The notes under the pieces were generated by a model, which was not told where the DNA came from, did not search any database, and saw only the letters and a list, made by a program, of their open reading frames with translations. From Solirubrobacterales bacterium 67-14 (GTDB lineage: Bacteria > Actinomycetota > Thermoleophilia > Solirubrobacterales > 70-9), in NCBI GenBank assembly GCA_001897355.1, contig MKST01000011.1, positions 456,429 to 520,428 of the forward strand: 64,000 nucleotides of DNA, in the 5' to 3' direction. The position numbers and the translations under genes were made by a program. Positions 4,821 to 60,454 of this stretch are shown here, in pieces. Positions within the stretch are counted from its first letter, which is position 1. Every line of letters starts with the position of its first letter.

Positions 4821-5366
4821 ATGTTCGTCTTCATCCTTGCCCTGCTCATCATCTGGCCGATCGCGGAACTTTTCGTGATGGTCCAAGTAGCCGACTGGAT
4901 CGGCTTCTTCTGGATGCTCCTCCTGCTCTTTCTCTCGGCCGTGGCGGGGTTCACGGTGCTCAAGCACCGCGGCCGCGCCCACTGGCGTCGTTTCCGCGGA
5001 GCGATCGACGAGCGGCGCCCGCCGGCCCGTGAGGCCTTCAACGGAGTGATGATCACGGCCGGTGCGCTGCTGCTGATCATTCCTGGCTTCATCACTTCGG
5101 CCTTGGGGCTGATCCTGCTCTTCCCACCGACCCGATGGCTGCTCCGCCTCGTCGCTATCACCCTCTTCGCCTCCAAGTTCAAGGTCGCCGCGACCAGCGC
5201 CAGCTGGGGCAACCGGGGTTACGGCTACTACCGCTCCTCCCGCCGGACGGCCTACGACATCGACGGCGAAGCGGTCGACGTGACCGACCGGCCCGACGGT
5301 GAGCCCCTCCCCCAGCTACGCTCCGGGTCGGAAAGCGGTGAAGACCAAGACGATCGAAATCCTTGA
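4821..5366 (+). CDS. fxsA: FxsA family membrane protein
   Basis: 181 aa with two hydrophobic N-terminal helices (residues 1-20 and 25-45) and a hairpin of two more (about 75-110), the layout of FxsA, an inner-membrane protein known in E. coli for relieving phage T7 exclusion by F plasmids. Characteristic stretches are the WPIAELFVMVQVADWIGF start and IIPGFITSALGLILLFPPTR. The last 60 residues are soluble, Tyr/Arg then acidic. Its 3' end overlaps the next gene by 29 bp in another frame. Cellular role in actinobacteria is not known. Confidence 0.88.
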   Translation: MFVFILALLIIWPIAELFVMVQVADWIGFFWMLLLLFLSAVAGFTVLKHRGRAHWRRFRGAIDERRPPAREAFNGVMITAGALLLIIPGFITSALGLILLFPPTRWLLRLVAITLFASKFKVAATSASWGNRGYGYYRSSRRTAYDIDGEAVDVTDRPDGEPLPQLRSGSESGEDQDDRNP

Positions 5367-35986: not shown

Positions 35987-36067
35987 CCGGTCAATCTAGC
36001 CCCCGGACCACCGGGACGGACGGCCAGCCACTCTGACCACCGGCGACACCGGTATTTTTCAGGCTTG

Positions 36068-37798
36068 ATGGGGCGTCCGCCTTCACGCCTGGAAAGGCAA
36101 AGAAGACTCAAGACGAGGGCACTGCCTCTGGTCGGAATCGCGCTGGTCGCTTTCGTCCTCGGCGCGATCAAGGGCTGCCCGGGCAGTCCGCACCGGGACG
36201 CGGCCGAGGATTACGTCCAGGCCTGGCAGGACGGCGACTACTCAGCGATGTACGGGATGCTCAGCACCAAGTCCCGGGAAGGCATCTCCGAGGAGCGGTT
36301 CACCGACCGGTACGAGGCCGCGGCCGCCGAGGCCACGCTGCAGTCCCTCGACCACGACGACGCCAAAGGCGACGAGACCAACGCCGAGGTCCCGGTCGAG
36401 GCGAAGACCCTCGCTTTCGGAACGATCGATCAGCCCCTCAAATTCACCTTCGGCTCGGACGGGATCGCCTGGCAGAACAGCCTGCTCTTCCCCGGCCTCG
36501 AGTTGAACGAGGAGTTGACCCGCACCATCAAGCTCCCCACCCGGGCGAAGATCCTCGCCAAGGACGGCCAGGTCATGGCCGAGGGGCCGGTCGACGCCCG
36601 TGAGCATCCGCTCGGCGACGCGATGATCGACGTGACCGGGGTGACCGGAGAACCGGAGGACGGCGGCAAGAGCCTCGACGCGACCGCGATCGGTTACGAA
36701 CCCGGTGAGACGACCGGGACCAGTGGTCTCGAGCTCGCTTTCAACGCACGGCTGACCGGCGCCCCCGGGGGCACGCTCTACGCGAAACCGATCAATGGCG
36801 GCACCGACGGCCAGGGCCGCGAGCTCGGCCGTGGCAAGCCCTCCCCGGCCAAGCCGCTCAAGACCACGATCGACCCCAACCTGCAGAACTCGGCCGTCAG
36901 CAACCTCGCCGGGGCGCCCGGCGGCGTCGCCGTGCTCGACGCCCGGACCGGGGTGGTCCGGGCCTTGGCCGGCCAGGCCTACTCGGTGCTCCAGCCACCC
37001 GGTTCGACCATGAAGATGGTCACCGCGACCGCCGCCCTAGAGACCGGCGCCGCGACGCTCGACTCCTCCTACGACTACGTGACCGAGGCGCCGGCCGATG
37101 GTCGCATGATCAAGAACGCCCACGGCGAGGTATGCGGTGGCACCTTCACCGAATCGTTCGCCCATTCCTGCAACTCCGTCTTCGCCCCGCTGGCCGAGCA
37201 GATCGGCCCGGAGAAGTTCACCGCGACCGCCGAGAAGTACGGCTTCAACCGGCCGCCGCAGATCTGGGATCCGGCCAGCCTCGCGGTGGTCGACCCACCG
37301 ACCCCGACCATTCCCAAGGCCGACGAGTACGAGAGCGACCTCGGCGTCTCCGGGATCGGCCAGGGCAGGGTCCAGGCGACCCCGCTGCTGATGGCCAGCA
37401 TCGCCCAGGCGATTTCCAACAAGGGCGTTTCCCTGCCCACGCCGATCACCAGGGAAACCGGCCTCCAGCCCGATTCGGGGCCGGTCCGGGTGACCAGCCG
37501 GAAGGTCGCCTCGCAGGTCGCCGACCTGATGGTTGCGGTCGTCACTTCCGGGACCGGGCCGGCCGCCGCCATCTCCGAGGCCCAGGTGGCCGGCAAGACC
37601 GGCACCGCCGAGGTCGGACCGAGCGGCGAGCTGGACGAAAACGGCGACCCGATCAACATCGAGGACGCCTGGTTCGCCGGATTCGCCCCCTCCGACAAGC
37701 CGAAGCTGGCGATCTGCGTGATGATCATCGACGCCTCCGGCGACGGCGGCACCGTCGCCGCCCCCATCGCCGGAGCCATCCTCAGCGACGGCCTTTAG
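36068..37798 (+). CDS. Class B penicillin-binding protein (transpeptidase)
   Basis: 576 aa; ATG 36068 preferred, a TTG lies directly before it. One N-terminal membrane anchor (LPLVGIALVAFVLGAIKGC), an NTF2-like MecA_N domain (about residues 45-160, DAAEDYVQAWQDGDYSAMYGMLS) and a transpeptidase domain with S313-T-M-K316, S367-C-N369 and K510-T-G. Cross-links peptidoglycan outside the membrane; similar to mycobacterial PbpA-like/Rv2864c-type enzymes in the NTF2-like domain. The usual PBP dimerisation domain is short. Followed by hairpin family 4 copy a, 10 bp after the stop. Confidence 0.93.
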   Translation: MGRPPSRLERQRRLKTRALPLVGIALVAFVLGAIKGCPGSPHRDAAEDYVQAWQDGDYSAMYGMLSTKSREGISEERFTDRYEAAAAEATLQSLDHDDAKGDETNAEVPVEAKTLAFGTIDQPLKFTFGSDGIAWQNSLLFPGLELNEELTRTIKLPTRAKILAKDGQVMAEGPVDAREHPLGDAMIDVTGVTGEPEDGGKSLDATAIGYEPGETTGTSGLELAFNARLTGAPGGTLYAKPINGGTDGQGRELGRGKPSPAKPLKTTIDPNLQNSAVSNLAGAPGGVAVLDARTGVVRALAGQAYSVLQPPGSTMKMVTATAALETGAATLDSSYDYVTEAPADGRMIKNAHGEVCGGTFTESFAHSCNSVFAPLAEQIGPEKFTATAEKYGFNRPPQIWDPASLAVVDPPTPTIPKADEYESDLGVSGIGQGRVQATPLLMASIAQAISNKGVSLPTPITRETGLQPDSGPVRVTSRKVASQVADLMVAVVTSGTGPAAAISEAQVAGKTGTAEVGPSGELDENGDPINIEDAWFAGFAPSDKPKLAICVMIIDASGDGGTVAAPIAGAILSDGL

Positions 37799-37807
37799 CA
37801 TCTGCAC

Positions 37808-37880
37808 GTCATCCGGTCTTCGCCGGATGACAACGGAAACCCGCCCCTCCCACTCGAATCAAAAGATGGTTGGGAGGGGC
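37808..37880 (-). repeat. Bipartite hairpin element (family 4), copy a
   Basis: Read on the minus strand: stem A GCCCCTCCCA (37880-37871) with TGGGAGGGGC (37852-37843), 10 perfect pairs, then GGGTTTCC and stem B GTCATCCGG (37831-37823) with CCGGATGAC (37816-37808) around the hexaloop CGAAGA. The same two-stem layout recurs at 57725-57795 and 60093-60162 with compensating base changes. It sits between the convergent ends of the PBP gene and the DUF559 cassette. Confidence 0.85.
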
Positions 37881-43234: not shown

Positions 43235-44041
43235 ATGCCGTCCTCCGCTCCCTCCTCCGCGCGGACCACCCCTGCGCTGGAGATAACCGACCTGGTCAAG
43301 CGCTATCCGAACGGGACCGAAGCCCTGAAGGGTGTTTCGTTGGAGATCGCCGATGGCGAGTTCTTCGGCTTGCTCGGCCCGAACGGAGCCGGCAAGTCGA
43401 CCCTGATCCATTGCTCGACCGGTCTGGCCGGGCCGACCTCCGGTGACATCCGGGTCTTCGGCCACAACGCGGTCAGCGACTACCGTGCGGCCCGGGAGGC
43501 GGTCGGCCTCGCCCCGCAGGAACTCAATATCGACTGGTTCCTGACCGTCGAGGAAACGCTCGACTTCCACGGCGGCTACTTCGGCATGACCAAGCAGGAC
43601 CGCAAGGAACGGGTCGACGAGTTGCTCGAATCGTTCTCCCTGACCGAGAAACGGAACGACCGCACCCGGGAGCTTTCCGGCGGCATGAAGCGCCGGCTGA
43701 TCCTGGCCCGGGCCCTGATGCACCGGCCGCGCCTGCTGATCCTCGACGAGCCGACCGCCGGGGTCGACGTCGAGCTCAGGCTGGAGCTCTGGCACTACGT
43801 GCGACAGGTCAACCTGGAGGGCACCACGATCCTGCTGACCACCCACTACCTGGAGGAGGCCGAGCAACTCTGCAGCCGAATCGCCTTCATCAACGGTGGC
43901 GAGATCGTCGACCAGGGTTCCAGCGCGGAACTGGCCGAGCGCTTCGGGGTCGGCAGCCTCGAGGACGCCTACCTGGAGCTGGTCGGCCGCAAGGAACTTT
44001 CGCGGGCCCACGTCGGGACCGAGGAGGAGGCGGAAGCTTGA
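43235..44041 (+). CDS. ABC-2 type transporter, ATP-binding protein
   Basis: 268 aa; ATG 43235, with a GTG directly before it. Walker A GPNGAGKST, Q-loop LAPQELNID, signature LSGGMKRRLILARAL, Walker B LLILDEPTAGVD, H-loop TTHYLEEAE. Belongs to the DrrA/CcmA-like exporters (YadG type). With the permease directly downstream (TTGA overlap) it makes a two-gene exporter; the cargo is not predictable. Confidence 0.94.
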   Translation: MPSSAPSSARTTPALEITDLVKRYPNGTEALKGVSLEIADGEFFGLLGPNGAGKSTLIHCSTGLAGPTSGDIRVFGHNAVSDYRAAREAVGLAPQELNIDWFLTVEETLDFHGGYFGMTKQDRKERVDELLESFSLTEKRNDRTRELSGGMKRRLILARALMHRPRLLILDEPTAGVDVELRLELWHYVRQVNLEGTTILLTTHYLEEAEQLCSRIAFINGGEIVDQGSSAELAERFGVGSLEDAYLELVGRKELSRAHVGTEEEAEA

Positions 44042-44805
44042 GCCCCTCGACGATCCGCTTCGTCGCCCTGACCCGGCGCGAGGTCAGCCGCTTCCTGAAG
44101 ATCCCTCGCCAGACGGTCGGCGCGCCGCTGCTCGAGACCTTCCTCTACATCTCGATCTTCGGCGCCGCCCTCGGCTCCCGGGTCGGCGAGCTCCACGGCT
44201 TCGACTACATCGTCTTCGTGATCCCGGGCCTGATCATGATGGCCTTCGCGATCAACTCGTTCAGCAACAACTCGTCCTCGATCCTCCAACAGAAGTTCCA
44301 GGGGGCGATCGACGACCAGCTCTCTTCCCCGGCTTCGCCCGGCCAGTTGCTGCTCGCCTTCACACTCGGCGGCTTCCTGCGCGGACTACTGATCTCGGTC
44401 GTGACCTTCATCGTCGCCAGCCTGCTGGTCGACCTTCCCGTCAAACACTTCTACGTCCTGATCCCGGCCCTGTTCCTGGTCGGCTGGTTCTTCGCCAGCC
44501 TCGGTGTCCTGGTCGGGGTGAGGGCCGAGCAGTTCGACGACGTCTCCTTCGCCCAGACCTTCATTCTGCAGCCGCTGATCTTCCTCGGCGGGGTCTTCTA
44601 CTCGGCCTCGCTCCTGCCCGAGCCATACCAGACCCTGACCCACTTCAACCCCGTCTACTACATGATCTCTCTGGTCCGCTACGGCTTCCTCGGCGTCTCC
44701 GACATCAGCGTCTGGCTGGCCCTCGGCTTCCTCACGGTCGCCACCGCCGCCCTCACCTACGCGAACTACCGCATGTTCAAATCCGGCTACAAACTCCGAA
44801 AATAA
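44038..44805 (+). CDS. ABC-2 type transporter permease
   Basis: 255 aa from TTG 44038, overlapping the ATPase stop. Six membrane helices with the ABC-2 signature (SPGQLLLAFTLGGFLRG…, LQPLIFLGGVFYSASLLPE…LTHFNPVYYMISLVRYGFLG). YadH-type. Ends with NYRMFKSGYKLRK. Partner of the upstream ATPase. Confidence 0.94.
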   Translation: MSPSTIRFVALTRREVSRFLKIPRQTVGAPLLETFLYISIFGAALGSRVGELHGFDYIVFVIPGLIMMAFAINSFSNNSSSILQQKFQGAIDDQLSSPASPGQLLLAFTLGGFLRGLLISVVTFIVASLLVDLPVKHFYVLIPALFLVGWFFASLGVLVGVRAEQFDDVSFAQTFILQPLIFLGGVFYSASLLPEPYQTLTHFNPVYYMISLVRYGFLGVSDISVWLALGFLTVATAALTYANYRMFKSGYKLRK

Positions 44806-44827
44806 GGAGTCGGGCGGGGTCCGCAGG

Positions 44828-44878
44828 CAGTGAGGTTGAAGTTTCGAGCGCTATGTGGCGAGAATTTCAATCTCACTG
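44828..44878 (+). repeat. Hairpin family 1, copy c
   Basis: CAGTGAGGTTGAAGTTTCG (44828-44846) pairs with CGAGAATTTCAATCTCACTG (44859-44878), one bulge and G-U pairs that exist only in the plus-strand RNA. It follows the ABC permease stop by 23 bp and could end that transcript. Confidence 0.75.
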
Positions 44879-44907
44879 GGAATAAAGCCAGGCGGAGGCG
44901 CCTTCAC

Positions 44908-45318: not shown

Positions 45319-45459
45319 GACCACGGGGTCAGAGCGATCCCGCATTCCTGACAGTTCCGCGGCCGGTATCGCCACCAACTGGAGCCGGCCCATCCATCAC
45401 TTGTTTCTGTGGGCCGGCGGGTTCGACTTGGAGGCGGAGCGAAGCTCGCCGACTTGTCT

Positions 45460-46494
45460 TTATTCGAAGACGGCTTCTTCTATGGCGCTGATTTCGTTGA
45501 CGCAGTTGATCACTGCGGGGGCTTTGCCGAGGGCGGTGTCGGGATCCTTGAGGCCGTGGCCGGTGAGGACGCAGACCACCGTCTCCGGCTTATCCATCCC
45601 CTCGACGGTGGGCAGACCGTGGTTGAGGATGCCGGCGACCGAGGCGGCCGAGGCCGGCTCGCAGAAGACGCCCTCGTTGGCGGCCAGCCAGCGGTAGGCA
45701 TCGAGGATCTGCTCGTCGGTGACCGCGGCGACCCGTCCGCGTGAGGTATTGAAGGCGTTCATCGCTTCCTCCCAGCGGGCCGGGTTGCCGATCCGGATAG
45801 CGGTGGCGACGGTCTCCGGCTTCGCAACCGGGGCGCCGTCGACCAGCGGTGCGGCTCCGGCCGCCTGGAAGCCGTAACAGATCGGCGCGGTCCCTCGCTC
45901 CTGGAAGCCCTTCCAGTAGGCGGAGATGTTGCCGGCGTTGCCGACCGGGATCGCCAGCGCGTCCGGCGCCTGCCCCAGCTCGTCGATCAGCTCGAAGGCG
46001 GCAGTCTTCTGGCCCTCGATCCGGTACGGGTTGACCGAGTTGACCAGTTCGATCGGGTGGCGCTCCGCCAGGTCGCGGACCGCGGTGAGGGCGTCGTCGA
46101 AGTTCCCCTGGAGGGCGATCACCCGGGCGCCGTGCATCAGCGCCTGGGCGAGCTTGCCGATCGCGATGTTGCCTTCCGGCACGATCACCGCGCCGCGCAG
46201 GCCGGCCCGCACCGCGTAGGCGGCGGCCGAGGCGGCGGTGTTGCCGGTCGAGGCGCAGATCACGGCCTTGGCGCCACGGCCCGCGGCCCGGGACACGGCG
46301 ACCGTCATGCCGCGGTCCTTGAAGGAGCCGGTCGGGTTCGCCCCTTCCACCTTGAGGTAGACCTGGGCCCCGACCCGTTCGGAAAGCCGGGGAGCCGGCA
46401 CCAGCGGGGTCGAACCCTCGTTCAGGCTGACCACCGGGTCGCCCGGTTCGAGCGGCAGGGTGTCGCGGTATCTCTCGATCAGTGGCTGTGGCAT
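45460..46494 (-). CDS. thrC: Threonine synthase
   Basis: 344 aa, fold-type II PLP enzyme converting O-phosphohomoserine to threonine. The PLP lysine is in [18 protein letters not shown], with the phosphate-binding glycine loop [14 protein letters not shown]… split here as [17 protein letters not shown], and [14 protein letters not shown]. Short form (about 350 aa) as in other actinobacteria. Downstream gene of the lysA-hom-thrC set, 21 bp after hom. Confidence 0.95.
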
Positions 46495-57426: not shown

Positions 57427-57701
57427 CCCAGGGCTTGAATCTTGCCGGCCAGCTCGAAGTCGGCCTCGGTCAGGCCGCCTTCGGCGTGGTTGGTGATGGC
57501 GACCGTGACCTTGTTCCAGGAGATCCCCAGGTCGGGGTGATGGTTCATCGCCTCGGCCGGTTCGACCAAGGAATCGACGAACCGGACCGAGCCGACGAAG
57601 TCCTCCAGCTCGAACTCACGGACGATCCGCCGGCCCTCGAGGCTCCAACCGTCAAGCCCGGCCAGCCGATCTTGAATTTCCTTGTCGCTCAGCAGAGCCA
57701 T
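57423..57701 (-). CDS. phhB: Pterin-4a-carbinolamine dehydratase
   Basis: 92 aa, full family length. The signature HHPDLGISWNKVTVAITNHAEGGLTEADFELA contains the paired histidines and the conserved WNKV and TxH motifs of PCD/DCoH. Recycles 4a-hydroxytetrahydropterin; a phenylalanine hydroxylase is not in the window. Starts 24 bp from hairpin family 4 copy b. Confidence 0.95.
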   Translation of the reverse strand: MALLSDKEIQDRLAGLDGWSLEGRRIVREFELEDFVGSVRFVDSLVEPAEAMNHHPDLGISWNKVTVAITNHAEGGLTEADFELAGKIQALG

Positions 57702-57724
57702 ACTCTGAGGCTACCCAAGACAGA

Positions 57725-57795
57725 GCCCCTCCTAACCATCAGATTGTTCTCATAGGAGGGGCGGGTTCGATTGAAGGTCCGGCGAAGACCGGACC
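57725..57795 (+). repeat. Bipartite hairpin element (family 4), copy b
   Basis: Stem A GCCCCTCCTA (57725-57734) with TAGGAGGGGC (57753-57762), linker GGGTTC, stem B GGTCCGG (57776-57782) with CCGGACC (57789-57795) around CGAAGA. Relative to copy a, stem A has a T-A pair where copy a has C-G, and stem B has a different, still paired sequence. It ends 22 bases before the cobalamin-binding-protein gene start and so lies in its leader. Confidence 0.85.
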
Positions 57796-57817
57796 GACTG
57801 CAGTTAAGTTTGAAGCT

Positions 57818-58729
57818 GTGCGTATTGCTTCCCTTGTCCCTTCTTCGACCGAGATGCTCTTTGCGCTCGGGCTCGGCGAGCAGGTCGTCGCGGTCACCCA
57901 CGAATGCGACTACCCGGCCGAAGCGGCGGCACTGCCCCATCTCAGCGAGACGGTGATCCCGACCGGGCTCTCCCCGGCCGAGATCGACGCGGAGGTGAAG
58001 CGCCTGGTCGGCGGCGGCGAGCCGCTCTACCGGCTCAAGGCCGAGGTGCTCGAAGCCGTCCGGCCCGACCTGATCATCGCCCAAGACGTCTGTGCGGTCT
58101 GCGCCGTCTCCTACGACGACGTGCTGGCGATCGCCGCGTGCCTGCCCGGCGACCCGGTCGTGCTCAGGCAGGATCCGACCTCGCTGGCCGAGGTGCTGGA
58201 GAACGCGGTCGAGGTGGCCGAGGCGGCCGGAAGGCCCGAGGCCGGCACCACGCTCAAGGCAGAGATGGAATCGAGGATCGAGCGGGTTCGGGCGGCGGTC
58301 GCCGGCCGCGAACGACCGACCGTGCTCGCCCTCGAATGGCTCGACCCGCCCTTCACCGGCGGCCACTGGGTGCCGGAGATGATCGAGGTCGCCGGCGGCC
58401 TCGATCTGATCGGCAGGCCGGGACTGAAGTCGGCCGAGCACGACTGGAGCGAACTCGAAGGACTGGATCCGAACCTGGCCGTGGTCATGCCCTGCGGCTA
58501 CGACGCCGATGAGGCCGCGACGCAGGCCCATGAGTACATCGAGCGGATCAGGTCAACCGGAGCCGAAAGGATCGTCGCGGTCGACGCCGCCGCCTCCTTC
58601 TCGCGACCCGGCCCCCGCCTGATCGACGGAATCGAGCTGCTCGCCGGCCTCCTCCACCCAGATGCGGCCTTAGAGGAAGGGAAGATTGAGCACCGCGAAC
58701 TGGATGCCGGTGAGCGGCTCCGCGGCTGA
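57818..58729 (+). CDS. BtuF-like cobalamin-binding domain protein
   Basis: 303 aa from GTG 57818. Starts directly with RIASLVPSSTEMLFALGLGEQVVAVTHECDYP, the helical-backbone substrate-binding fold (BtuF/FepB type), and continues with YRLKAEVLEAVRPDLIIAQDVCAVCAV, EWLDPPFTGGHWVPEMIEVAGG. No signal peptide, so it is likely cytoplasmic or moonlights, unlike true periplasmic BtuF. Last 60 bp overlap the 3' end of the rhomboid gene. No transporter partner is in view. Confidence 0.85.
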   Translation: MRIASLVPSSTEMLFALGLGEQVVAVTHECDYPAEAAALPHLSETVIPTGLSPAEIDAEVKRLVGGGEPLYRLKAEVLEAVRPDLIIAQDVCAVCAVSYDDVLAIAACLPGDPVVLRQDPTSLAEVLENAVEVAEAAGRPEAGTTLKAEMESRIERVRAAVAGRERPTVLALEWLDPPFTGGHWVPEMIEVAGGLDLIGRPGLKSAEHDWSELEGLDPNLAVVMPCGYDADEAATQAHEYIERIRSTGAERIVAVDAAASFSRPGPRLIDGIELLAGLLHPDAALEEGKIEHRELDAGERLRG

Positions 58730-59539
58730 GATCGCGGCGAAGATCGAGACCGCGGCGATCGCGATCATCCCTCCGTACTCGAGCAGGCGGGAGTTCGAAC
58801 CGAGGTAGCCCCGCTCGCCGGCGATGACCAGGATGCCGCAGAGGGCGCCGCCGACCAGGCCGCCGAGATGGCCGCCGATGCTGATCCCGCTGATCGTGAA
58901 GGTGAGCAGCAGGTTGATGCCGATGATCACGCCGATCTCGTTGGCGACGTGGCCGAGCCCGCGGCCGTAGGCGATGATGAAAGTCGCGGCGAAGAGCCCG
59001 AAGACGGCGCCCGAGGCGCCGACCGTGAGGTCGATGTTGCTGCTCAGCAGGATCGCCCCGAAAGACCCGGCCAGGAGCGAAGCGAAGTAGATCATCAGGA
59101 ACCGCACCGTGCCAACCGACGGTTCCAGCACCCGGCCGAGGAAATAGAGGGCGATCATGTTGAAGGCGATGTGCATGAATCCCGCGTGGAGGAACCCGCT
59201 GGTGATCAGCCGGTACCACTCACCGTCGGCGACCAGGGCGCCCCGGAGGCCGAAGTCGGTGATCAGGTCCGAGGTGGTCGAGTTCAGGCCGCCAGAACCG
59301 GTCGCCATCTCGGCCAGGAAGACGACCACGTTGACCGCGATCAGGGCGATCGTCGCCGGGTAGCCGCCGACCTGCGAGGTGGCGGCCGGGCCGGTGCGGA
59401 CCCGGGTCTTCTCGCTCGCGCACTCTGGGCAGCGCATGCCGACCGGGGTCGGCGTCATGCAGTCAGGGCAGATCGGCCGGCCGCAGCTGGAACAGGAAAC
59501 GCCGGTCTCTACGTTGGGGTGGCGATAGCAAGTAGCCAA
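58670..59539 (-). CDS. Rhomboid-family intramembrane serine protease
   Basis: 289 aa from TTG 59539, chosen because it starts at ATCYRHPN like homologues; ATGs further upstream would add a non-homologous leader. N-terminal B-box-like zinc finger (CYRHPNVETGVSCSSCGRPICPDC…MRCPEC), then seven-helix rhomboid core: GEWYRLITSGFLHAGFMHIAFNM, catalytic Ser in VGASGAVFGLF and His in IGGHLGGLVGG. Cleaves membrane proteins within the bilayer; substrates unknown. Divergent from the DUF4383 gene. Confidence 0.93.
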   Translation of the reverse strand: MATCYRHPNVETGVSCSSCGRPICPDCMTPTPVGMRCPECASEKTRVRTGPAATSQVGGYPATIALIAVNVVVFLAEMATGSGGLNSTTSDLITDFGLRGALVADGEWYRLITSGFLHAGFMHIAFNMIALYFLGRVLEPSVGTVRFLMIYFASLLAGSFGAILLSSNIDLTVGASGAVFGLFAATFIIAYGRGLGHVANEIGVIIGINLLLTFTISGISIGGHLGGLVGGALCGILVIAGERGYLGSNSRLLEYGGMIAIAAVSIFAAISAAEPLTGIQFAVLNLPFL

Positions 59540-59594
59540 GGGACAGAACCCTACCGAGGCCACCGACCTCCGGTGATCCTGTGAGAATGACCCC

Positions 59595-60092
59595 ATGGAG
59601 AGGACCGCATACGCCCGTCTGTACGCGACCGTGACCGGTGCCTTCCTGGTGCTGCTCGGCTTCGTCGGGCTGCTGGTCAACACCGAGTTCAGCGCCCGCG
59701 AGCTGACCGACGAACTGCTCGGCTTCTACACGATCAACGGCTGGTCCGGCGTCTTCCACGTCGGGGCCGGGCTGGTCGGCCTGCTGCTCGCTCGCCCCCT
59801 CCCCCGCCTCTACGCATTGCTGGCGGGGATCGTCTTCACCGGCCTCGGGATCTGGGGGATCCTCGCCGCCAACGGGACCTGGCTGCTGGACGGCCTGCCG
59901 GCCACCCGCTGGGTCAACCTGGTCAACCTGCTGATCGGCCTGGGCGGCCTCTGCGCCTACGCGGCCAGCCGCTGGGACCGGATCACCGCCTGGTTCAGTG
60001 GGCTCGGCGCCCGGTTCGAGGCGCGAGCCGAGAAACGCCGCCAAAAGAGGCGGCGCCGCAAGGTCCGCAAGCGCCGAACGACTGCCAGCTGA
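59595..60092 (+). CDS. DUF4383 membrane protein
   Basis: 165 aa, four hydrophobic helices with the DUF4383 pattern (GFYTINGWSGVFHVGAGLVGLLLAR, GTWLLDGLPATRWVNLVNLLIGLGGL) and a C-terminal tail rich in Arg and Lys (AEKRRQKRRRRKVRKRR). Function unknown. Hairpin element copy c starts at the base after its stop. Confidence 0.88.
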   Translation: MERTAYARLYATVTGAFLVLLGFVGLLVNTEFSARELTDELLGFYTINGWSGVFHVGAGLVGLLLARPLPRLYALLAGIVFTGLGIWGILAANGTWLLDGLPATRWVNLVNLLIGLGGLCAYAASRWDRITAWFSGLGARFEARAEKRRQKRRRRKVRKRRTTAS

Positions 60093-60162
60093 GCCCCTCC
60101 CTCCATCAGTTGTCGCTCGGGAGGGGCGGGTTTCTGTGGTGCCCCGGCGAAGTCCGGGGCAC
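60093..60162 (+). repeat. Bipartite hairpin element (family 4), copy c
   Basis: Stem A GCCCCTCCC (60093-60101) with GGGAGGGGC (60119-60127), linker GGGTTTCTGTG, stem B GTGCCCCGG (60139-60147) with CCGGGGCAC (60154-60162) around CGAAGT. Stem B again differs from copies a and b while staying fully paired. Lies between the DUF4383 gene and the convergent small membrane protein gene. Confidence 0.85.
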
Positions 60163-60172
60163 ATCCTTGTGT

Positions 60173-60454
60173 CTAGCCGCGGAAACGGCTGCGGCGGCGG
60201 AAGCCGACCAGGATCAACGCACCGGTGGCCACCCCGCCGGCAGCCAGCGCGGTGACCGGTCGAATCCAGTTGCGCGGGTCGCGCAGTGACTGGAGCTCGC
60301 TCTCGGTCAACTCCTCAGCCCAGTCGGAGAGGTCGGAGGCGGCAGCGTCGGTGATCGCCGAGAAGGTGTCATGCAGCCGGTCCGACATCCGCTGCGGCGG
60401 GTCGACCGGCTTCAGCGCGTCGGCGAGCAGGTTCTCGATCCTGATCTCATCCAT
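60173..60454 (-). CDS. Small single-pass membrane protein beside an ECF sigma factor
   Basis: 93 aa from ATG 60454 (a TTG two codons earlier is possible). Acidic helical N-terminal half with one membrane helix near the C-terminus (PVTALAAGGVATGALILVGF) and a short Arg tail. Its start lies 8 bp inside the sigma factor gene, so the pair is translationally coupled; an anti-sigma role is a reasonable guess, but no zinc-binding or other anti-sigma motif is seen. Confidence 0.75.
   Translation of the reverse strand: MDEIRIENLLADALKPVDPPQRMSDRLHDTFSAITDAAASDLSDWAEELTESELQSLRDPRNWIRPVTALAAGGVATGALILVGFRRRSRFRG

What the first reader, a model, noticed from the sequence alone, without database searches (positions are those of the whole stretch)
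57725..57795. Dispersed two-stem element with compensating base changes in both stems
Three copies (37808-37880 on the minus strand, 57725-57795, 60093-60162) share one layout: stem A of GCCCCTCCN type with loop starting CCATC, linker GGGTTTC/GGGTTC, stem B closing on the constant hexaloop CGAAG(A/T). Stem A pairs are CCCA/TGGG, CCTA/TAGG and CCC/GGG; stem B arms are GTCATCCGG, GGTCCGG and GTGCCCCGG, each with its exact complement. Sequence differs but pairing is kept, which is the mark of selection on structure (RNA or cruciform). Contexts differ: 3' of two genes, 5' leader of one. I know no described element of this form.
Basis: partly seen in the sequence, partly recalled or inferred. Interest (0 to 1): 0.8.

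Follow-up and report, generated by a model that had tools for sequence, protein, structure and literature searches.

The report
REP-like two-hairpin repeat at gene ends
The three look-alike hairpin pairs are members of a family of about 90 scattered short repeats, found only in one branch of one genus of soil and sludge actinobacteria, sitting mostly just behind the ends of genes; they resemble the REP repeats of other bacteria, but this genome shows no sign of the enzyme that usually goes with REPs.

Summary
The window holds four copies, not three, plus a fossil. A covariance model finds 73-90 copies in the 3.23 Mb genome. Copies occur in sister species of one Solirubrobacterales genus and, one borderline hit aside, nowhere else in 232 genomes of the order. 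Both stems covary far beyond chance (score 0.419 against 0.122 shuffled and at most 0.060 slid). Copies prefer convergent gene pairs (31 seen, about 12 expected). The 3' tail usually abuts, and often supplies, the stop codon of the opposing gene. Sister species show empty sites, an orthologous copy with a compensating change, and sites holding a different stem type. Head-to-head pairs with 36-41 nt linkers occur. Stem B on the reverse strand carries a tag (AGTC) and a TCCA/TCCC tail, the architecture of REP elements. No Y1 (RAYT), RT or IS110 protein was found in any copy-bearing genome; T-tracts are uncommon; no Rfam family fits. Best reading: a new REP/BIME-like family with a two-hairpin unit and unknown mover. 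The compensating changes need not mean RNA selection; few G-T pairs point to DNA palindromes.

The parts
57725..57762 (+). copy 1, stem A (GCCCCTCCTA ... TAGGAGGGGC)
   Evidence: sequence
57776..57795 (+). copy 1, stem B (GGTCCGG-CGAAGA-CCGGACC)
   Evidence: sequence
57796..57807 (+). copy 1 tail GACTGCAGTTAA
   Evidence: sequence; tail common to many copies
37808..37880 (-). copy 2, stems A and B, between convergent genes; ends next to the stop codon of the penicillin-binding-protein-like gene (36065-37798 +)
60093..60162 (+). copy 3, stems A and B; the bases just before stem A (GCTGAG) hold the TGA stop codon of the upstream gene (59595-60092 +)
44803..44823 (+). fossil: tail and half of a reverse-strand stem B (TAAGGAGTCGGGCGGGGTCCG); its TAA is the stop codon of the gene 44038-44805
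   Evidence: one exact match to the 16-mer

Best explanation
It is a lineage-specific REP/BIME-like dispersed DNA repeat. The unit is about 85-90 bp: two unlike palindromes (A, then B) in fixed order with a conserved linker (CGGGTT) and tail. It also occurs as head-to-head pairs with a 36-41 nt linker in the own genome. Copies have been gained, lost or replaced among sister species, and they settle within a few bases of stop codons, with an excess between convergent genes. Shown: dispersal, covariation, placement, empty and filled orthologous sites, pairs, REP-like tag and tail. Inferred: that the hairpins are (or were) recognised as single-stranded or cruciform DNA by an enzyme not identified here, and that insertion is by that route. 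Also inferred, more weakly: that copies kept behind stop codons act as transcribed 3' hairpins that shield mRNA ends or limit read-through between converging genes.
For: 73-90 copies in one genome, otherwise in sister species. Empty orthologous site at copy 1 in G015, G012, G010, G011; copy 3 filled in G012, empty in G015, G010, G007 and G013. In about 790 kb of G001, 15 own sites were by my reading 4 filled, 3 with remnants, 8 empty. Same site and boundaries but different stem types, e.g. C7:367108 against its G012 orthologue. Four head-to-head pairs at 36-41 nt. AGTC tag on the reverse strand of stem B in 86 hairpins and TCCA/TCCC tail in 78; NGTC before stem B in 129 of 153 copies. Convergent bias chi-square p about 1e-8 to 3e-10. 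The published description of REPs matches on head-to-head dimers, gene-end placement and repeat-supplied stop codons (PMC3733652).
Against: No transposase of the REP kind (Y1, PF01797) is found in any copy-bearing genome, so mobility rests on comparative evidence alone. No clear target duplication (direct 7-mers 27 against 16.6 expected, weak), though IS200/REP-type insertion would not need one. Known REP dimers are inverted pairs; a fixed A-then-B unit is unusual. Sites conserved across species with different stems could also reflect retention with fast arm turnover instead of repeated insertion.
Confidence: 0.75

Rival explanations
1. A functional 3'-UTR or intercistronic RNA element (stability, or termination without a U-tract), kept by selection at RNA level, whose spread is secondary.
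For: The 3' tail faces the stop codon of an opposing gene in 50 of 72 own copies, 37 of them within -10 to +4 nt, and in 16 of 21 G001 copies. Copy 3 and its G012 orthologue differ by a compensated C-G to T-A pair.
Against: G-T pairs are rare (about 1% of core cells; 5% with apical extension), although one-sided G-U changes would be tolerated in RNA. Nine own copies lie between divergent genes. Both orientations occur. Canonical hairpins with T-runs sit right beside some copies, so there the element is not the only candidate terminator.
Confidence: 0.3
2. Ordinary intrinsic (rho-independent) terminators with fixed arms.
For: GC-rich hairpins at gene ends, enriched between convergent genes.
Against: A T-tract follows stem A on the forward strand in 24 of 153 copies, and the other three stem ends in 13, 13 and 1. 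In the window the terminator scan found 10 against 7.6 and 4 against 1.8 expected. Shared linkers, loops and tails, and restriction to one clade, do not fit independent terminators.
Confidence: 0.05
3. The covariation comes from quasipalindrome correction (template switching that copies one arm onto the other), so compensating changes appear in one step without selection on structure. This concerns the cause of the covariation and can hold together with the best explanation.
For: Double changes far outnumber one-sided ones (240 cells against 17 in A4). Very few G-T intermediates. Arms are often exact Watson-Crick complements (90 of 153 for A, 101 of 134 for B).
Against: Both stems are kept near-perfect across about 150 copies and several clearly different arm types. 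A mutational bias alone would not keep linker and tail constant or place copies at stop codons.
Confidence: 0.3
4. A conventional MITE of a DDE transposon, with terminal inverted repeats and target-site duplications.
For: Head-to-head pairs form a composite about 210-215 bp long whose outer ends are inverted copies of the same tail.
Against: No consistent target duplication. Most copies are single units, not pairs. The genes between three close pairs look like ordinary genes, not a transposase.
Confidence: 0.1

Closest known systems
CGTC-tagged REPs (PMC3733652)
   Same: Short palindrome with an NGTC tetranucleotide at one end and a short CCA-like unpaired tail; several stem and loop subsets; mainly head-to-head dimers; placed close behind stop codons and between convergent genes; no dedicated transposase known.
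   Different: Tag here is mostly AGTC, with CGTC/TGTC in a minority; first stem pairs are usually GG/CC, not AT; loop mostly six bases; stem B is joined to a second, unlike palindrome (stem A). The text of that survey does not contain the word Actinobacteria.
GTAG-tagged REPs, BIMEs and REPINs with RAYT transposases (PMC3116915, PMC2817692)
   Same: Dispersed palindromes, singlets and inverted doublets, compensatory changes in hairpins, extragenic placement; repeat ends that supply stop codons (stated in PMC3733652).
   Different: No GTAG tag among the common tags; no Y1/RAYT gene in any copy-bearing genome; two unlike palindromes per unit.
MITE-like small repeats such as NEMIS/Correia and RUP (review PMC2229807)
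   Same: Small, intergenic, multi-copy, hairpin-forming.
   Different: No clear target duplication and no terminal inverted repeats on single copies.

Membership tests
CGTC-tagged REP | terminal CGTC (or TGTC/CCTC) tag | tested here: inconclusive
   rc strand of stem B: AGTC 100, CGTC 14, TGTC 11, GGTC 4, none 24 of 153
CGTC-tagged REP | stem of 8-9 bp starting with complementary A-T pairs, loop 4-5 | tested here: not met
   stem B is 7 bp in 76 copies and 9-10 bp in 33; most arms start GG; loops mostly 6 nt
CGTC-tagged REP | short unpaired tail of CCA type | tested here: met
   rc tail TCCA 53 and TCCC 25 of 134 hairpins; met in the majority subtype only
REP/BIME in the broad sense | high-copy extragenic palindromes, near stop codons, convergent bias | tested here: met
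REP/BIME in the broad sense | inverted (head-to-head) dimers | tested here: met
   four head-to-head pairs at 36-41 nt and one direct pair in the own genome; others in G001, L131, L132; most copies are singlets
GTAG REP / RAYT system | Y1 tyrosine transposase (PF01797) in the genome | tested here: not met
   absent from all copy-bearing genomes (drafts, 73-96% complete); present only in G004, which has no copies
GTAG REP / RAYT system | GTAG tag | tested here: not met
   tag counts at stem B and flanks of stem A
Intrinsic terminator | hairpin followed by a T-tract | tested here: not met
   24, 13, 13 and 1 cases for the four stem ends among 153 copies
MITE (DDE type) | target-site duplication | tested here: inconclusive
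   weak excess of direct 7-mers, 27 against 16.6
Rfam RNA family | match at gathering score | tested here: not met
   none in the window; only matches at E>1 in 57600-60300
Riboswitch or leader RNA | consistent position in 5' leaders of functionally related genes | tested here: not met
   9 of 72 copies are between divergent genes and 31 between convergent ones; relatedness of flanking genes was not surveyed

The most novel reading that the evidence does not exclude
A REP-like system in Actinomycetota with an unknown mover. A two-hairpin DNA unit is inserted at stop codons, and its arms are exchanged at already occupied sites by a recombination or template-switching process, leaving boundaries intact while the stem type changes.
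Probability: 0.2. Interest if true: 0.65.

Novelty: new variant of a known kind. Interest (0 to 1): 0.45.

Why it matters
REP repeats are linked mainly to RAYT enzymes, and the CGTC class without an enzyme is an open puzzle (PMC3733652). Here is a further, mostly AGTC-tagged class in a phylum that survey does not name, with copies gained or lost among close species and no Y1 enzyme in sight. That makes it a natural place to look for another mover, or to measure how palindrome arms change in pairs. It is also a caution: compensating changes in paired arms do not by themselves prove an RNA.

Tried and rejected
Rfam at gathering and relaxed thresholds: nothing. Plasmid, phage and viral collections: no match. 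RAYT/Y1, reverse transcriptase and IS110 as mover: absent from copy-bearing genomes. Genes between three close copy pairs as an autonomous element: ordinary-looking genes, judged by eye from the translations. Target-site duplication: weak at best. Integron attC: an RYYYAAC-like end (such as GCTTAAC) exists on one side of some copies, no matching core seen at the other; judged by eye, not pursued. Literature: no paper in the held library joins Solirubrobacterales with 'interspersed repeat'; the two that also hold 'palindromic' look unrelated from title and abstract (not read). Absence there is not proof.

Full report
OBSERVATION. They fold into the two stems as RNA and as DNA. A covariance model built from the three finds 73 copies in the 3.23 Mb genome at E<=0.001. 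A second model, built from copies in relatives, finds 90. The window itself has a fourth copy at 45379-45463 and a fossil half-copy at 44803-44823 whose TAA is the stop codon of the gene before it.

WHO HAS IT. A pattern scan of the 84,980 genomes of GTDB 220 hits almost only Solirubrobacterales MAGs (the pattern covers only the commoner stem A types). The exceptions are an 'Actinomycetota' bin and a 'Hyphomicrobiales' contig end; the latter has a 5' flank identical to own copy C2:183769, so it is probably a misbinned contig. The models find copies in G000, G001, G007, G010, G011, G012, G013, G015 and one in G014, and otherwise only one borderline hit (G108, E 9e-4) in 232 genomes of the order (in the wide search only 19 candidates per genome were scored). 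In trees of two proteins the bearers group together. The single G014 copy lies on a contig whose genes are 88-93% identical to the own genome, whereas the G014 orthologues of two window genes are at 59-66%, so it too may be a misbinned contig.

ANATOMY. Unit, 5' to 3': three variable bases and GA - stem A (mostly 9-10 bp, most often GCCCCTCCCA, also GCCGGCCCA, GCCCCGCCCA, GCCCGATCA and others) with a loop that starts near CCATC - GGGTT linker - stem B (7 bp, or 9-10 bp in one type) - a tail such as GACTGCAGTTAA. On the reverse strand stem B reads AGTC - palindrome - TCCA or TCCC in most copies. An NGTC tag precedes stem B in 129 of 153 copies, AGTC in 100. The hexaloop CGAAG(A/T) is one of several.

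COVARIATION. On 66 distinct copies, nearly all from relatives: score 0.333 against 0.104 shuffled and at most 0.082 slid. On 75 distinct own copies: 0.419 against 0.122 and at most 0.060, with 240 double-change cells against 73. These alignments were fitted to models of this structure, so a second check was made on stem A: arms anchored only on flanking constant bases, 50 distinct arm pairs, 95.7% Watson-Crick at the six inner positions against 53.9% (maximum 65.3%) when arms are re-dealt. Double changes outnumber one-sided ones 240 to 17, and G-T pairs are about 1% of core cells, 5% with apical extension. That is the signature of a DNA palindrome or of palindrome correction as much as of RNA selection. 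Shared descent of copies is not modelled in any of these tests.

PLACEMENT. Of 72 own copies with two neighbours, 31 are convergent, 32 codirectional, 9 divergent, against 12 / 48 / 12 expected by junction count (p about 1e-8) and 11 / 37 / 23 by intergenic length (p about 3e-10) (the expectation comes from the window and about 790 kb of G001). In 50 the gene on the 3' side ends towards the element; its stop codon falls within -10 to +4 nt of the modelled end in 37, and inside the tail (-10 to -3) in 25. The 21 G001 copies repeat this: 16 face a stop codon, 15 of them between -7 and +6. The gene calls are from a codon-usage script, not from annotation.

TURNOVER. Copy 1: the same divergent spacer is 40 nt and empty in G015, G012, G010 and G011. 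Copy 3: present in G012 at the same place with a compensated change (GCTCCTCCC/GGGAGGAGC against GCCCCTCCC/GGGAGGGGC), empty in G015, G010, G007 and G013. Copy 2: no element behind the orthologous gene in the other species, but the next gene differs there, so it is not a clean empty site. For 15 own sites with G001 orthologues I read 4 filled, 3 with remnants, 8 empty (scored by eye). Several filled orthologous sites hold different stem A and stem B types within matching boundaries. Other-species loci in that comparison were mostly fetched because they hold copies, so only the G001 contigs give a less biased sample.

PAIRS. Head-to-head pairs with 36, 38, 41 and 41 nt between units occur at C11:46623/46744, C3:388327/388453, C1:33443/33571 and C5:63038/63164, plus one direct pair. 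One pair folds strongly as DNA (z -4.1).

WHAT IT IS NOT. No Rfam family. T-tracts are uncommon. No Y1/RAYT, RVT_1 or IS110 (PF02371) match in any copy-bearing genome; these are drafts of 73-96% completeness, so a gene could be missed in one, less likely in all. No clear target duplication. Not in the plasmid, phage or viral collections at the sensitivity used.

COMPARISON. The published REP survey (PMC3733652) describes GTAG- and CGTC-tagged palindromes. The CGTC kind often varies to TGTC or CCTC, ends in CCA-like tails, forms mainly head-to-head dimers and lacks a dedicated transposase; REPs of both kinds lie next to the 3' ends of genes. REPINs (PMC3116915) are inverted REP doublets with common compensatory changes. 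The present family looks like these. It is not filed as a CGTC REP, because the A-T start of the stem and the loop length are not met and the tag is mostly AGTC. It is not filed as a RAYT system, because the enzyme is not found.

VERDICT. A new REP/BIME-like family in Solirubrobacterales with an unusual fixed pair of unlike palindromes. Mobility is inferred from comparative evidence; the mover and any function at mRNA 3' ends are open.

Noticed in passing
window 44829-44886; also L104 near 1451: A different palindromic repeat (GTGAGGTTGAARTTTC ... TTCAATCTCAC) follows the fossil; its 16-mer occurs in one other fetched place, upstream of another element copy (the second listed locus, L123, is the window's own stretch).
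   Followed up: partly
L139 (JAFKJW010000054.1), positions 1-71: A contig binned as Hyphomicrobiales ends in a copy whose 5' flank is identical to own copy C2:183769; probably a misbinned contig of this or a very close species.
   Followed up: partly
L075 (G014:C22): The only G014 copy lies on a contig with genes 88-93% identical to the own genome while G014 orthologues of two window genes are at 59-66%; possible misbinning.
   Followed up: partly
G001 C45 about 12.0 kb and own C10 about 40.6 kb: Other long inverted repeats, such as GTAGGCATCTCGGTGTTTCGCTCTTCC with its complement, show up in intergenic regions at element sites.
   Followed up: no
L132 about 4860-5090: At least 12 nt (GGATGGGTCGGC), running on into linker and start of a unit, are repeated directly on both sides of a copy, as in tandem BIME arrays.
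   Followed up: no
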